Assembly (NCBI GenBank): GCA_029975165.1
Contig: JARKPR010000097.1
Coordinates: 1-42,640 of the forward strand
Reading direction: 5' to 3'
Origin: Selenomonadales bacterium
Lineage (GTDB): Bacteria; Bacillota; Negativicutes; Sporomusales; UBA7701
Length of the DNA: 42,640 bases
Shown: positions 292 to 9,092 of the stretch, in pieces
Position numbering within the stretch: position 1 is the stretch's first letter
Layout: each line of letters opens with the position of its first letter
Translations under genes and position numbers: made by a program
The notes under the pieces: generated by a model
Told to the model about the DNA's origin: nothing
Database searches by the model: none
Seen by the model: only the letters and a program-made list of their open reading frames with translations

Positions 292-358
292 AAAAGGAAA
301 AGGCTGAAATGCGCGGCACACGTGCCTACGTTTTCAGCCTTCTGCTTTCGGATCGGCT
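292..358 (-). promoter_or_regulatory. Sulfur-locus leader element, metY proximal copy
   Basis: On the minus strand an upstream hairpin (outer AGCC:GGCU, a GA/A internal loop, inner UCCG:CAGA with one mismatch) shares its 3' arm with the 5' arm of a terminator (AAGGCUGAAA...AUUUCAGCCUU) followed by UUCCUUUUUCC. The two folds exclude each other, the geometry of a transcription attenuator. It is the second of two copies in series before metY. Function is inferred from the fold. Confidence 0.6.
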
Positions 359-384
359 CACATATAGTATGCGTAATAAACAAG

Positions 385-433
385 AAAGACCAAAGCAACG
401 CGGCGCTCCGGCCTTTGGTTTCCCAATCGGCTA
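385..433 (-). promoter_or_regulatory. Sulfur-locus leader element, metY distal copy
   Basis: This is the promoter-proximal copy. The small hairpin has outer pairs GCC:GGC, a GA/A internal loop, inner stem UUGG:CCAA and loop GAAA (411-431). The competing terminator pairs ACCAAAG (gene strand, 413-419) with CUUUGGU (389-395) and is followed by CUUUCUUGUUU. It starts about 10 nt after the expected transcription start of the promoter at 448-476. Confidence 0.62.
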
Positions 434-447
434 ACTGTCTTTTCTAA

Positions 448-476
448 AGTTTAGCTAACCGCGCCGGATATGTCAA
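448..476 (-). promoter_or_regulatory. Sigma-A type promoter of metY
   Basis: On the minus strand TTGACA (471-476) is followed after 17 bp by TAAACT (448-453). This is a perfect -35 and a good -10 at ideal spacing. It fires into the two leader elements and then metY, and lies just past the stop of the DUF2292 gene. Confidence 0.75.
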
Positions 477-514
477 GACTTTTTTCCAAGGACGCTTTGC
501 GTGGCAGCACGGCG

Positions 515-880
515 TCAGATGCCTTCTCCGTCAAGGCCTTCGAGACCCCGCCATCTGGTCCGCTCGTTGCGTTCGATGCGGGCGATCGTCCCGTTGTTCA
601 CCGTAACGACCACCTGGCCGAACTGCAGTCCCAGCAAGGTCTGAAAGAGTTTGCTCCTGGTCGCCGGGCCGCTTTTCTGACCGGTCGGCGGGCAGTCCTC
701 GGCATTGTCCACGCGGATGATTTCCCTGACTTCGATTTGCACGAGTACCCCGTCTTGGACGACGAGGGTGACAGTGCCGAAGTTGTTGGCGGCTATCGCG
801 TCCTCGATATAACGGAGGACGTTGTCGCTCAGGTTGGCGGTCGACAGCTGCCAGCGCGTTATTTTCCCGTGAGGTTGCAT
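515..880 (-). CDS. Tandem DUF2292 (YezD-like) protein
   Basis: A 121-residue protein made of two copies of the DUF2292/YezD fold. Copy 1 is about residues 17-60 (FGTVTLVVQDGVLVQIEVRE), copy 2 about 74-113 (FGQVVVTVNNGTIARIERNE). The usual family member is a single domain of about 60 residues, and the family is repeatedly found beside sulfur-assimilation genes; its biochemical role is unknown. The start at 880 was chosen because AGAGGGA stands at good spacing before it; an in-frame start further upstream at 949 would run into the leader element at 921-976 and lacks a ribosome site. The gene lies between the rhodanese gene and metY, and its own leader suggests control with the sulfur genes. Confidence 0.75.
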   Translation of the reverse strand: MQPHGKITRWQLSTANLSDNVLRYIEDAIAANNFGTVTLVVQDGVLVQIEVREIIRVDNAEDCPPTGQKSGPATRSKLFQTLLGLQFGQVVVTVNNGTIARIERNERTRWRGLEGLDGEGI

Positions 881-920
881 CCCGATTCCCTCTTTCCCAA
901 GTTGGCGGCCATCAACAGCG

Positions 921-976
921 AAGGCCAAGGATTGGCCCCCGGCGGGCATCCTCGGCCTTCAGTCGCTCTGATAGGC
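921..976 (-). promoter_or_regulatory. Sulfur-locus leader element before the DUF2292 gene
   Basis: Gene-strand hairpin with outer GCC:GGC, a UA/A internal loop and inner UCAG:CUGA, overlapping a 12-bp terminator stem that begins AAGGCCGAGGAU and closes with AUCCUUGGCCUU. No consensus promoter is visible in the 33 bases between it and the stop of the rhodanese gene, so it probably acts on read-through transcripts inside the operon. Confidence 0.6.
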
Positions 977-1009
977 AGGCTGTTTTTTTCCGAACCGGCG
1001 CAGAGCCGG

Positions 1010-6965: not shown

Positions 6966-6991
6966 TTTCCTCACTCCTTGTCTTGGTCGCG

Positions 6992-8473
6992 CTAGCCGCC
7001 GATTACCGGCGGCTTAACGCCATGATAGAACAGCCACGAGATGAACAGTCCCACCCAAAGGATGAAGCCGAACAGGGCCACGGCATAAACGGCGACGATC
7101 CGTCCCACCCCGGCCGCCCAAAGCTTGCGCACATCGGTGACAAGGCCGATGGAGAAAAAGCACAAGCCGAAAAAGGTGCTGCGCAGCAGATTGGCCTGGC
7201 TGGCGCCGGCGTCGGCTGCCTTCACGAGCGACGGGTTGAAGATCCCCAGCAGGAAGAGGACGAAGAACGTGAAGACGAAACCGAGGACGAATTTCGGGAA
7301 CCGGTCCCAGATTTCCCGTGCCGAAACCTTGTACGTCTCGCCCTCCGGCCGGCGCGTATCCAGCCGGTACACCGACCAGATGGCGGCCAGGATGAAGGCC
7401 CACACGCCAATGAAGATGTCGATGAATAGCTTCGTCGTCGTCGCCGCCATCAGCACCCAGCCTTCCTGATACTTGATTCCGAACTGGGACAACGCCTTGG
7501 CGCGGATAAGCGCGTCGGTGATCGCCCCGCTGGCGACCGCCCCGCCGTCGCTCTTCACCGCCAGCCCCATCCAGGCCCCGGCCACCAGCGGCTCGTGGGC
7601 CAGAAAGGCGGTTGCCAGCCACGGCAGGAACAGCAGCTCGACCGCCACGAACACGATTATGATCGACGCCAGCACGGTCGGCACGAGCGGGCGGGCGCGG
7701 ATGGCGCCGCCGGTAGCAATCGCCGCCGCCACGCCGCAGATCGAAATGCCTGACGCCAGCGGCGCCGCCCATTCCGGCGTGAATTTGAAGTAGCGGCGGG
7801 AAACGAAATACACAACCGGCCAGTAGAGCAGATACGCCTCCACCACCGCGCACAGGCCGCGGAAGATCACCGTCCCGGCCAGGCTCAGGGCCCCGACCGT
7901 CTTGATGCCGATCGCCATCCCGAGGATGACGATCCCGGTCTTGATATACCACTCCGGGCGCGCGGCGTCCGCCAGAAACCTGGCGGTGGCCGGGAAGAAA
8001 TTGCCGATGACGAGGCCGACGATCAGTGCGAAAACGAAGCCCAGTTCGCCGAGGCTCAGCGACCAGGCGATCTTGAGGCTGGCCTGTTTGTCCGGCGTCG
8101 CTGCGATGTAGGCGTAATTGCCCAATACCGTCGCCATAAACGTGATCCAGTACACGGCCGTGAAGCCGAGGGCGAACCGCGCCGGCCTGCTCCCCATGAC
8201 GGTGGCCCCCGCCGTGGTTATGGCCAGCAGGAATATGTAGGTCGCGCCCGCCGCGCCCCACCCGCCTAGACCGGCATACACCTTGGAATTCGGCTCGAAC
8301 GCCTGGGCAAAATCCAGCCAGACGTTGTGTTTGGGCACCCAGCCCAAAAGATCGCCGCCCAACAGCGGACCGATACCGAGGACGAAGACTAGCAGGCCTA
8401 GCCAGACCGCCCACCAATCCTCGTTCCGCAGCACCGCCTTGCTGGCGTAAACAGAATCCTGTTCACTGCTCAT
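6992..8473 (-). CDS. YeiH-family putative sulfate exporter (UPF0324/PSE), long form
   Basis: A 493-residue polytopic membrane protein. About a dozen hydrophobic segments are visible, with the family core in KTGIVILGMAIGIKTVG, SGISICGVAAAIATGGAI and KSDGGAVASGAITDALIRAKA. Typical YeiH proteins have about 340 residues; this one has an N-terminal extension of about 100 residues and a long loop near 370-400 (YRLDTRRPEGETYKVSARE). The family is a predicted transporter of sulfate or related anions, and its exact substrate is not established. Placement among sulfur-assimilation genes, with the same leader element in front, supports transport of a sulfur compound. ATG 8473 follows AGGTGAGGTGAT. First gene of a two-gene operon with the small membrane protein. 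Confidence 0.82.
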   Translation of the reverse strand: MSSEQDSVYASKAVLRNEDWWAVWLGLLVFVLGIGPLLGGDLLGWVPKHNVWLDFAQAFEPNSKVYAGLGGWGAAGATYIFLLAITTAGATVMGSRPARFALGFTAVYWITFMATVLGNYAYIAATPDKQASLKIAWSLSLGELGFVFALIVGLVIGNFFPATARFLADAARPEWYIKTGIVILGMAIGIKTVGALSLAGTVIFRGLCAVVEAYLLYWPVVYFVSRRYFKFTPEWAAPLASGISICGVAAAIATGGAIRARPLVPTVLASIIIVFVAVELLFLPWLATAFLAHEPLVAGAWMGLAVKSDGGAVASGAITDALIRAKALSQFGIKYQEGWVLMAATTTKLFIDIFIGVWAFILAAIWSVYRLDTRRPEGETYKVSAREIWDRFPKFVLGFVFTFFVLFLLGIFNPSLVKAADAGASQANLLRSTFFGLCFFSIGLVTDVRKLWAAGVGRIVAVYAVALFGFILWVGLFISWLFYHGVKPPVIGG

Positions 8474-8547
8474 AATATCACCTCACCTTTTTTATTTGGG
8501 ACACCATGCGTTTCCGGCCAGCCGTCACCTCCTCCCATGCAACGCAA

Positions 8548-8600
8548 AAGGCCAAAGAATGATGTTACATTCTTTGGCCTTCGGCTTTCCCAATCAGCTC
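8548..8600 (-). promoter_or_regulatory. Sulfur-locus leader element before yeiH
   Basis: Clearest copy. The hairpin has outer GCU:GGC, a GA/A internal loop and inner UUGG:CCGA. Its 3' arm opens a perfect 14-bp terminator stem (AAGGCCAAAGAAUG with CAUUCUUUGGCCUU, 6-base loop), followed by UUGCGUUGC. It begins about 10 nt after the expected transcription start, so the hairpin is at the very 5' end of the RNA, leaving little room for any other aptamer. Confidence 0.65.
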
Positions 8601-8616
8601 GTATTGAGTTAGTAAT

Positions 8617-8645
8617 AGCCTAGCACGCTGTGCCGGGCGTGTCAA
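8617..8645 (-). promoter_or_regulatory. Sigma-A type promoter of yeiH
   Basis: Minus strand TTGACA (8640-8645), 17-bp spacer, TAGGCT (8617-8622). The leader element starts shortly downstream. Confidence 0.75.
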
Positions 8646-8887
8646 TACCAAATAAGAAACTTATTGACATTCACCCGCTGTGAAGAATCCGCTTTAGCCA
8701 TCATAGCCTCATTAGTCGCAATATGCCGCTATTCCGGATTCGCACCCTGTTGCGATCCGGGGCTTTGCAAAGGATTTATTATTATTCCGCAAGCTTTTCT
8801 AGCCATTCTTCACGCCAAAACATGAAGCAGCCTCGATCACAACGACCAGAATTTTACCGCCTTTGCAATATACGCCATCGAGCAACA
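8646..8887. other. Non-coding, probably decayed sequence
   Basis: Between the yeiH promoter and the permease remnant I see no intact gene. Short open stretches on the minus strand have no ribosome site and match nothing I recognise. The stretch probably holds the eroded remainder of the transporter gene whose start survives at 8888-9013. Confidence 0.4.
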
Positions 8888-9013
8888 CTAACCGCACATC
8901 AGGCCGATGCCCAGAGAGGATTCTATCCCCCGCAGCGCCAGTTCCAGGGTCAGCCAGGCAGCCCGTTCAAACAAAGGGATGGCTGTTAGCACAAATTTCC
9001 AGTTGATATTCAT
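8888..9013 (-). pseudogene. Remnant of an amino-acid ABC transporter permease (N-terminus)
   Basis: A 41-residue start of a polar-amino-acid/cystine-type ABC permease. It reads MNINWKFVLTAIPLFERAAW, then LTLELALRGIESSLGIGLMCG, ending in an in-frame stop. The pattern 'N-W-x-F-V-L-x-A-I-P-x-x-x-x-x-A-W-x-T-L' followed by the first membrane helix is typical of this family, whose full length is about 220 residues. A good GGAGGGGAGAG site precedes the ATG, and a sulfur leader element stands upstream. It was probably once a sulfur amino-acid importer under the same control. No continuation in other frames was convincing. Confidence 0.55.
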
Positions 9014-9040
9014 TGCCCCACTCTCCCCTCCGAAAAAGAA

Positions 9041-9092
9041 AAAGGCTAAAGCGTCCGTTGCCGGAACTTTAGCCTTTAGTTCTGACCTAACT
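9041..9092 (-). promoter_or_regulatory. Sulfur-locus leader element before the permease remnant (divergent copy)
   Basis: An 11-bp terminator stem (AAAGGCUAAAG with CUUUAGCCUUU) is followed by a strong U-rich tail UUCUUUUUCGG. The upstream hairpin is weaker than in the other copies: outer AGUU:GGCU and inner GGU:ACU around a CAGA loop, without the GA/A internal loop. It lies between two gene remnants and may be decaying. Confidence 0.5.

What the first reader, a model, noticed from the sequence alone, without database searches (positions are those of the whole stretch)
292..9092. A repeated small leader RNA, seven copies, controlling a sulfur locus by mutually exclusive hairpins
Seen: at 292-358, 385-433, 921-976, 6462-6516, 6565-6618, 8548-8600 and 9041-9092 (minus strand) the same layout recurs. 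A short hairpin (outer 3-4 bp of RGCY:GGCY type, GA/A internal loop, inner 4 bp, 4-5 base loop) is followed directly by a 7-14 bp terminator stem starting AAGGCC, and the two share one arm. The inner stem covaries: UUGG:CCAA (metY distal), UUGG:CCGA (yeiH), UCAG:CUGA (both thiS-thiF copies and DUF2292). The genes behind it are all of sulfur assimilation. It lacks the conserved cores of the SAM (S-box), T-box or cobalamin riboswitches that I know. Its geometry is like the RAT sites of LicT/SacY antiterminators, but loops and gene context differ. Inference: a sulfur-status attenuator read by an RNA-binding protein, or a very small aptamer.
Basis: partly seen in the sequence, partly recalled or inferred. 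Interest (0 to 1): 0.88.

Follow-up and report, generated by a model that had tools for sequence, protein, structure and literature searches.

The report
RNA switch for bacterial sulfur starvation
A tiny RNA hairpin, repeated in front of sulfur-scavenging genes in many anaerobic bacteria, looks like an on/off switch that a so far unstudied small protein (DUF2292) would read, a protein whose tail imitates the one by which another protein docks on the cysteine-making enzyme CysK.

Summary
Each real copy is a ~24-nt hairpin (4-bp outer stem, GA/A internal loop, 4-bp inner stem, variable loop) whose 3' strand is also the first strand of a terminator. No Rfam family matches. A covariance model finds it in 68 of 250 Negativicutes genomes (7-29 copies in each of eight examined), Heliobacteria, Fontibacillus and termite-gut Deltaproteobacteria, before cysK, metY, sulfonate-type transporters, metQ, and nitrogenase-like and corrinoid-type genes. 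Seven of eight pairs show compensatory changes. I go further: the tandem-domain protein DUF2292 (YezD family) occurs nearly where the RNA does (67 of 68 RNA-positive genomes; 21 have the protein alone; in an independent class 28 have both, 4 RNA only, 31 neither), is often its neighbour (DUF2292 - RNA - cysK), and mostly ends in GDGI/GEGI, like the CysE tail that enters the CysK active site. Proposed (inferred): DUF2292 is the antiterminator; CysK holds it by this tail when sulfur is plentiful, and O-acetylserine frees it in starvation. Neither RNA binding nor CysK binding is shown here.

The parts
381..434 (-). Leader copy 2: antiterminator hairpin AGCC-GA-TTGG-GAAA-CCAA-A-GGCC plus overlapping terminator; first of a tandem before metY
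   Evidence: R1/R2 hits; isolated hairpin folds as proposed, -9.0 kcal/mol, terminator -15.7
295..360 (-). Leader copy 1: second of the tandem before metY (inner stem with one mismatch)
   Evidence: R1/R2 hits
448..476 (-). Promoter-like TTGACA-17-TAAACT, 13 nt before copy 2
   Evidence: read
916..979 (-). Leader copy 3, between the rhodanese gene and the DUF2292 gene
   Evidence: R2 E=6.8e-8 in own genome
6560..6619 (-). Leader copy 5: first of a tandem before thiS-thiF
   Evidence: R2 E=1.2e-14; hairpin fold
6457..6517 (-). Leader copy 4: second of the tandem before thiS-thiF
   Evidence: R2 E=6.2e-14; hairpin fold
6653..6681 (-). Promoter-like TTGACA-17-TAATAT, 33 nt before copy 5
   Evidence: read
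8543..8601 (-). Leader copy 6, before yeiH
   Evidence: R2 E=2.1e-13; hairpin fold
8617..8645 (-). Promoter-like TTGACA-17-TAGGCT, 15 nt before copy 6
   Evidence: read
515..880 (-). Tandem-domain DUF2292 (YezD family) protein ending ...GLEGLDGEGI: proposed RNA-binding antiterminator with a CysE-like tail
   Evidence: PF10055, 2 stretches; tail
2..208 (-). metY-type PLP enzyme, cut by the contig end
   Evidence: PF01053
1010..2620 (-). Four-domain rhodanese
   Evidence: PF00581, 4 stretches
2649..3878 (-). metY-type PLP enzyme
   Evidence: PF01053
3875..4123 (-). TusA sulfur carrier
   Evidence: PF01206
4120..4986 (-). Nitrite/sulfite reductase-type protein with 4Fe-4S domains
   Evidence: PF01077, PF03460
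4964..5407 (-). JAB-domain peptidase
   Evidence: PF14464
5404..6417 (-). ThiS-ThiF fusion (sulfur carrier and activating enzyme)
   Evidence: PF02597, PF00899
6992..8473 (-). YeiH-family membrane protein
   Evidence: PF03601
9041..9092 (-).
   Evidence: 26.6 bits, partial, at the level of reverse-strand background; ORF 9087-9371 is the C-terminus of PF01053

Best explanation
The element is a protein-dependent transcription antitermination site of a sulfur-starvation regulon. Step 1 (shown by comparison): each leader can form either a small hairpin (outer 4 bp, GA/A internal loop, inner 4 bp) or a much more stable terminator that reuses the hairpin's 3' strand. Step 2 (follows from the computed energies): without help the terminator wins, so the switch needs a positive, stabilising factor. 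Step 3 (inferred from co-occurrence and synteny): that factor is the tandem DUF2292 protein, which binds the hairpin at the CUGA/AGG internal-loop region. Step 4 (inferred from the tail and from CysE, CdiA and CymR precedents): the C-terminal GDGI/GEGI of DUF2292 enters the CysK active site as the CysE tail does; with sulfur plentiful and O-acetylserine low, CysK holds the protein and transcription stops; in starvation O-acetylserine displaces it, DUF2292 binds the leaders and the regulon is read through. In some genomes a SAM riboswitch in front of the DUF2292 genes adds a second input.
For: Covariation: 7 of 8 pairs with changes on both sides, 94.9% of cells paired, 97 double-changed cells, 0 of 500 shuffles as high; the outer pairs were not part of the model used to align. 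Terminators -15.7 to -32.1 kcal/mol against -4.7 to -9.0 for the hairpin. Regulon: of 115 distinct first genes, 14 PALP enzymes (one a threonine synthase, the others matching cysteine synthase models), 11 Cys/Met PLP enzymes, 6 UroD-type, 6 DUF2292, 5 YeiH, 4 NifH-type, 3 nitrogenase component 1 type. Co-occurrence: class n=250, 67 both, 1 RNA only (a 58% complete genome), 21 DUF2292 only, 161 neither; yardstick family DUF2325 49/19/39/143. Independent class of 63: 28 both, 4 RNA only, 0 DUF2292 only, 31 neither. Of 22 genomes reached through DNA hits, 17 of 17 with RNA have DUF2292 and 5 of 5 without have neither. Synteny DUF2292-RNA-cysK in Negativicutes and in Adiutrix; RNA in front of DUF2292 itself, three in tandem in L023. 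Tail: 62 of 82 DUF2292 reading frames and 19 of 19 further proteins of family f18 end GDGI/GEGI; G-x-G-I invariant in 47 chosen tandem proteins; only 9 of 3298 frames end G[DEY]GI, 8 of them DUF2292. E. coli CysE ends INHTFEYGDGI (PMC6829319); a terminal Ile is essential for CysK binding, O-acetylserine competes, and CymR, CdiA and EGL-9 bear similar tails (PMC12895370). SAM riboswitch in front of DUF2292 genes.
Against: No binding or expression data. DUF2292 is itself a regulon member, so co-occurrence could reflect that alone. Fifteen of the 21 protein-only Negativicutes genomes still show no RNA (17 of the 21 were fetched within about 2.5 kb of the gene, and G128 was seen through L212), and four RNA-positive Deltaproteobacteria genomes show no DUF2292. 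In the Adiutrix class the gene is mostly not next to the RNA (a model hit within about 1.5 kb in 1 of 28 loci). The DUF2292 of Fontibacillus is single-domain and lacks the tail, and one Veillonellaceae protein lacks it too. For the AlphaFold models (pLDDT 77 and 76) no similar solved structure was found, RNA-binding or other. DUF2292 also occurs in Bacillus subtilis and Pseudomonas fragi (PMC7921472), where the RNA was not looked for; deleting yezD in B. subtilis did not reduce survival in deep starvation (PMC6385201). Fisher values (8e-41, 6e-14) ignore shared ancestry.
Confidence: 0.6

Rival explanations
1. The hairpin is an antiterminator for the sulfur regulon, but another protein reads it; DUF2292 is only a regulon member, for example a small CysK-binding modulator.
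For: DUF2292 genes often carry the leader themselves. The tail predicts CysK binding, not RNA binding. No RNA-binding fold was recognised. Four RNA-positive genomes lack it. Only one other family was profiled as a yardstick.
Against: That other regulon family, DUF2325, tracks the RNA far less well. In the Adiutrix class DUF2292 is mostly not next to the RNA yet no genome has it without the RNA (28 to 0).
Confidence: 0.2
2. The hairpin is itself a very small metabolite aptamer (riboswitch), for example for O-acetylserine or cysteine.
For: Conserved internal loop (G in 138, A in 138 and A in 148 of 148 aligned matches, artefact rows included); metabolically coherent regulon.
Against: The terminal loop varies in length and sequence, only about three unpaired residues are conserved, promoter-like sites, where found, stand about 20 nt upstream so that little further RNA precedes it, and the tight link with one protein family would be unexplained.
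Confidence: 0.12
3. The repeats are ordinary terminators or mobile repeats without regulatory role.
For: One own-genome copy (C99) is an orphan with no gene behind it; reverse strands of terminators give background matches of 15 to 33 bits with R1 and up to 39.5 bits with R2.
Against: Compensatory changes in a hairpin that a terminator does not need, promoter-like sites in 80 of 136 against a shuffled mean of 18, gene context, and cross-phylum conservation.
Confidence: 0.03

Closest known systems
RAT antiterminators of LicT/SacY/GlcT (BglG family)
   Same: Small hairpin with asymmetric internal loop that overlaps and excludes a terminator; positive control; sometimes the antiterminator gene lies beside its own site (recalled)
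   Different: Shorter with one GA/A internal loop; sulfur instead of sugar regulon; up to 29 sites per genome; the candidate protein DUF2292 has no CAT or PRD domain in Pfam
S-box (SAM-I) riboswitch, RF00162
   Same: Sulfur and methionine genes, termination control (recalled); found in the same genomes and even in the same leader
   Different: No aptamer domain; different sequence and structure; the two occur in series as separate elements
CymR-CysK of Bacillus subtilis
   Same: Cysteine synthase as sulfur sensor through a partner protein, tuned by O-acetylserine and/or sulfide (PMC12895370, passages)
   Different: CymR acts on DNA; here the proposed partner acts on RNA and activates
CysE-CysK cysteine synthase complex and CdiA-CT-CysK
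   Same: C-terminal GDGI (CysE) or GYGI (CdiA) peptide in the CysK active site
   Different: No similarity of the rest of DUF2292 to these proteins came up in the family and structure searches made; only the tail is alike
thiS motif riboswitch candidate
   Same: Found before thiS genes, in part in Firmicutes (PMC6429828, passages)
   Different: Linked to thiamin-thiazole synthesis; here ThiS is part of a sulfur-assimilation set; no such Rfam match

Membership tests
RAT / BglG-family antitermination | Hairpin mutually exclusive with an intrinsic terminator | tested here: met
   Shared AAGGCY strand in all six copies; energies; covariation
RAT / BglG-family antitermination | About 30-nt stem with two asymmetric internal loops (recalled) | tested here: not met
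   One GA/A internal loop, 8 pairs, about 24 nt
RAT / BglG-family antitermination | CAT-PRD protein as reader | not tested
   PF03123 was not searched for; the candidate DUF2292 shows no such domain
ANTAR antitermination sites | Two consecutive hexaloop hairpins with fixed loop bases (recalled) | tested here: not met
   Single hairpin, loop 4 to 13 nt of variable sequence; ANTAR proteins were not searched for
S-box, T-box, cobalamin and other Rfam cis-regulators | Match to the family covariance model | tested here: not met
   No match in the window at gathering score; at E up to 10 only ctRNA_p42d at 9032-9079 and sR30 at 6488-6517, both far below their gathering scores; at the motif in 18 further loci only sub-threshold matches to unrelated families
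DUF2292 / PF10055 (candidate reader) | Pfam profile above the curated cut-off | tested here: met
   Window protein 68.4 bits against cut-off 22, two stretches
CysE-type CysK-binding tail | Exact C-terminal G-D/E-G-I | tested here: met
   Window protein ends GEGI; 62 of 82 frames do so; the other 20 are 16 first-domain-only frames, 2 fragments of L176, and L135 and L259
CysE-type CysK-binding tail | Physical binding to CysK displaced by O-acetylserine | not testable with these tools
   The CysK encoded beside the element in L012 is a standard cysteine synthase with TSGNTG and QQF-NPAN stretches
Known RNA-binding folds | Structural match of the DUF2292 model | tested here: inconclusive

The most novel reading that the evidence does not exclude
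DUF2292 founds a new family of RNA-binding antiterminators that carry a CysE-mimicking tail, so that the enzyme CysK, by holding or releasing them according to O-acetylserine, controls dozens of leaders at once, including those of nitrogenase-like (methylthio-alkane reductase type) and organosulfonate genes, in Negativicutes, Heliobacteria and termite-gut Deltaproteobacteria.
Probability: 0.55. Interest if true: 0.95.

Novelty: new variant of a known kind. Interest (0 to 1): 0.88.

Why it matters
It would give a function to a widespread uncharacterised protein family, explain how strict anaerobes of the Negativicutes and relatives run their sulfur economy, and show an amino-acid biosynthetic enzyme acting as the sensor for an RNA switch. 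It also marks, by a leader sequence alone, the genes a bacterium calls on when sulfur is scarce, among them nitrogenase-like enzymes and corrinoid methyltransferases whose role in methyl-sulfur use is a current question (PMC10418091, passages). It is directly testable with two purified proteins and one 60-nt RNA.

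Tried and rejected
Seventh copy: not counted (background-level score, no outer stem). Known riboswitches: Rfam scans found none at the motif. Aptamer reading: kept as a rival. DUF2325 as a second candidate regulator: tracks the RNA less well. 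Fold relatives of DUF2292: none found. A solved DUF2292 structure: none by sequence for the window protein; my pattern for the diverged element of family f18 contained one base too many and is void (0 of 250 genomes). Literature: in the held open-access library gave no description of this element or of DUF2292 as a regulator; most subscription papers are not in that library. One search (YezD) found 183 papers, 20 of them listed, nearly all by chance letters; the one listed on B. subtilis lists yezD as unknown, up in long starvation, its deletion without effect on survival (PMC6385201, passages). One search (DUF2292) found two papers; in one the gene is among the most down-regulated in Pseudomonas fragi biofilm comparisons (PMC7921472, passages), the other was seen as a listing only. 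Papers seen as passages: PMC10418091, PMC12552129, PMC12895370, PMC6829319, PMC6429828, PMC6385201, PMC7921472; all others as search listings. Recalled: the MetY-JAB-ThiS-ThiF route to homocysteine, ANTAR and RAT details, that O-acetylserine rises in sulfur starvation.

Rows dropped: 10 reverse-strand terminator artefacts were removed by eye from the 148 matches before (138 left, 134 with a reading frame, 115 distinct first genes); they are still in the counts. In one search, 14 of 253 sequences did not parse; that parser required the 3' A, so its 191 of 191 A is by construction, and it favours pairing. The downstream gene was picked by a length-and-distance rule and may be wrong for some copies. 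One search scored at most 21 candidates per genome, so copies there are lower bounds. G266 is the same assembly as G045 (same coordinates), so 16 of the 17 genomes are new. Fifteen of 21 DUF2292-only Negativicutes genomes remain unexplained: diverged elements were found near the gene in 5 of the 17 that I fetched and in G128; that scan gave 3.0 hits in shuffled sequence, so single weak hits count for little. For the tail and structure alignments I chose 43 and 47 proteins, most of them tandem; one search contains L135, which lacks the tail, and I left L135 out.

Full report
WHAT IS THERE. On the minus strand of the window six short leaders share one design: a hairpin NGCY-GA-(4 nt)-loop-(4 nt)-A-GGCY whose last strand, AAGGCY, is also the first strand of an intrinsic terminator. 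Copies 2 and 1 stand in tandem before metY, 5 and 4 in tandem before thiS-thiF, 6 before yeiH, 3 between the rhodanese and DUF2292 genes. Copies 2, 5 and 6 follow TTGACA-17-TAnnnT sites by 13, 33 and 15 nt. The genes are two MetY-type enzymes, rhodanese, TusA, a sulfite reductase-type protein, a JAB peptidase, a ThiS-ThiF fusion, YeiH and DUF2292; I recall MetY, a ThiS-like carrier, ThiF and JAB as the thiocarboxylate route to homocysteine.

IS IT MORE THAN CHANCE. A model from the six copies and two others of the same genome (R1) hits 50 of 60 genomes, the own one included, at E up to 0.1, a loose threshold at which terminators alone can score. A second model from 35 sequences (R2) hits 68 of 250 genomes of the class at E up to 1e-6. 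Eight genomes searched with laxer filters hold 7, 10, 14, 20, 21, 22, 27 and 29 copies at E up to 1e-5. They are clustered and co-directional: 17 of the 29 in G052 lie within 69 kb of one contig, all on one strand. Reverse strands of terminators give up to 39.5 bits with R2, so weak single hits are uncertain.

STRUCTURE. On 143 distinct aligned matches (about 10 artefacts included), 94.9% of cells pair, seven of eight pairs have changes on both sides, 97 cells are doubly changed (shuffled mean 27), no shuffle of 500 reaches the observed covariation, and sliding the partner by one base drops pairing below 70%. The outer four pairs were not paired in the model that made the alignment, so their covariation (A-U to G-C and U-A; G-C to A-U; C-G to U-A) is not imposed by it; the shuffles do not allow for relatedness. 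The outermost pair is the weakest (36 of 140 cells unpaired). The inner stem occurs as UCAG:CUGA, UUAG:CUAA, UUGG:CCAA, UCAU:AUGA, CUGG:CCGG and others; diverged copies beside DUF2292 genes of family f18 read AACU-GA-CUGG...CCGG-A-GGUU and AACU-GA-CCAA...UUGG-A-GGUU. The terminal loop ranges from 4 to 13 nt with no fixed sequence. Alone, the hairpin is worth -4.7 to -9.0 kcal/mol and the terminator -15.7 to -32.1, so a factor that stabilises the hairpin is needed to switch the gene on.

REGULON. Of 115 distinct genes behind copies (picked by rule), Pfam finds 14 PALP enzymes, 11 Cys/Met-type PLP enzymes, 6 UroD-type proteins, 6 DUF2292, 5 YeiH, 5 with the nitrogenase-cofactor domain, 4 NifH-type, 4 NMT1-type binding proteins, 3 nitrogenase component 1 type, 3 sodium:dicarboxylate-type symporters, 3 DUF1847, 3 DUF2325 and 2 homoserine O-succinyltransferases; 83 families matched and 25 were shown. 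One of the 14 PALP enzymes is a threonine synthase; the rest match cysteine synthase models. One first gene is a (2S)-3-sulfopropanediol dehydratase-type glycyl radical enzyme (871 bits, below the cut-off of 1000, on a fragment), another NifB (490 bits, cut-off 344), another an MtaA/CmuA-type methyltransferase (200.6 bits, cut-off 235), another a corrinoid-binding protein; metQ and lipB-lipA are also behind copies. NifHDK-like and corrinoid methyltransferase genes beside methionine genes agree with published gene clusters for methyl-sulfur use (PMC10418091, passages). Some first genes have no evident sulfur link (CO dehydrogenase type in L031, TctA type in L020, read by eye).

DISTRIBUTION. 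Fontibacillus has one copy. The 23 unconfirmed stretches are scattered over other taxa, as expected for chance.

THE PROTEIN. DUF2292 (PF10055) was looked for in the same 250 genomes: 67 have both, 1 the RNA only (58% complete), 21 the protein only, 161 neither. As a yardstick, DUF2325, another small unknown of the regulon, gives 49, 19, 39, 143. In the class around Adiutrix, 63 genomes: 28 both, 4 RNA only, 0 protein only, 31 neither. Seventeen of 17 genomes reached by confirmed RNA hits have it; 5 of 5 chance-hit genomes do not (one of the 17, G266, repeats G045). These counts ignore shared ancestry. In Negativicutes the protein is often beside the RNA: DUF2292-RNA-cysK in L012, L014, L015, L024, L033, L041-L045 and L052 (several of one family), DUF2292 pair-RNA-metY in L068; of 23 Negativicutes DUF2292 loci searched, 11 have a model hit within about 1.5 kb at E up to 0.001. 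The order DUF2292-RNA-cysK recurs in Adiutrix (L269). In the other Deltaproteobacteria it is usually not adjacent (1 of 28 loci with a hit), so adjacency does not explain co-occurrence there. DUF2292 genes also carry the leader themselves, three in tandem in L023. A SAM riboswitch stands directly in front of the DUF2292 genes in 7 of 20 loci and in L068 and the own genome (L295 and L207).

THE TAIL. DUF2292 here is mostly two alpha-beta-beta repeats, fused or as two adjacent genes. Of 82 frames, 62 end GDGI or GEGI; of the rest, 16 are first-domain-only frames, two are fragments of one gene, and L135 and the Fontibacillus protein lack the tail. All 19 further proteins fetched from family f18 have it, and G-x-G-I is invariant in 47 chosen tandem proteins. 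In the window and islands 9 of 3298 frames of 50 or more residues end G[DEY]GI, 8 of them DUF2292. E. coli CysE ends INHTFEYGDGI (PMC6829319, passage). PMC12895370 (passages) says that this tail inserts in the CysK active site, that the terminal Ile is essential, that O-acetylserine competes and sulfide stabilises, and that CdiA (GYGI), EGL-9 and CymR bear C-terminal motifs with an isoleucine. The model puts the tail in a low-confidence stretch. Whether these genomes also have a CysE with such a tail was not determined; a rough pattern search of the loci at hand found no CysE-like frame.

MECHANISM. Shown by comparison: mutually exclusive hairpin and terminator, sulfur regulon, association with DUF2292, CysE-like tail. 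Inferred: DUF2292 binds the hairpin; CysK sequesters DUF2292 by its tail; O-acetylserine releases it. The opposite sign, with the CysK complex as the active form, is possible but fits a positive regulator of starvation genes less well.

NOVELTY. Not in Rfam 15 as far as searches show; not found in the held open-access literature by searches. Protein-dependent antitermination is a known kind; this RNA, this candidate protein and the coupling to CysK would be new.

Noticed in passing
window 9087-9371 and 9041-9092: Truncated metY C-terminus followed by a terminator that keeps an inner-stem-like UUAG:CUAA: perhaps a decayed metY with a decayed leader.
   Followed up: partly
L007 1496-1552 (own genome C99:91285-91341, minus): Orphan leader, nearly a duplicate of the yeiH leader (upstream AACTCAATACGA shared), with no gene behind it; perhaps the trace of a rearrangement.
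   Followed up: partly
L068-L071 (G052:C16): About 70 kb with 17 co-directional leaders: an organosulfur island whose operons carry the same switch again and again.
   Followed up: partly
L037 1343-1443 and 1501-1562; L295 2189-2289 and 2347-2409: A SAM riboswitch followed directly by the new element before a metQ-type gene: two sulfur signals in series in one leader.
   Followed up: partly
L334 189-4694 (own genome C7): Leader, Fe-S-type protein, sulfonate-type ABC transporter, a shortened NifB-like frame, DUF2325 and a NifH-like frame in a row (read by eye, DUF2325).
   Followed up: partly
L261, L266, L271, L298, L301, L303, L305, L307: In the Adiutrix class DUF2292 often neighbours a gene that I read by eye as glutamate-1-semialdehyde aminotransferase (hemL).
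   Followed up: no
L072 6029-6346, L035 1646-1930, L077 1688-1996: Small proteins that look like DUF2325 are recurrent members of the regulon and of unknown role.
   Followed up: partly
L207, L057, L120, L256, L213: The two DUF2292 domains occur as two adjacent small genes; only the second carries the GDGI/GEGI tail, which suggests a heterodimer.
   Followed up: partly
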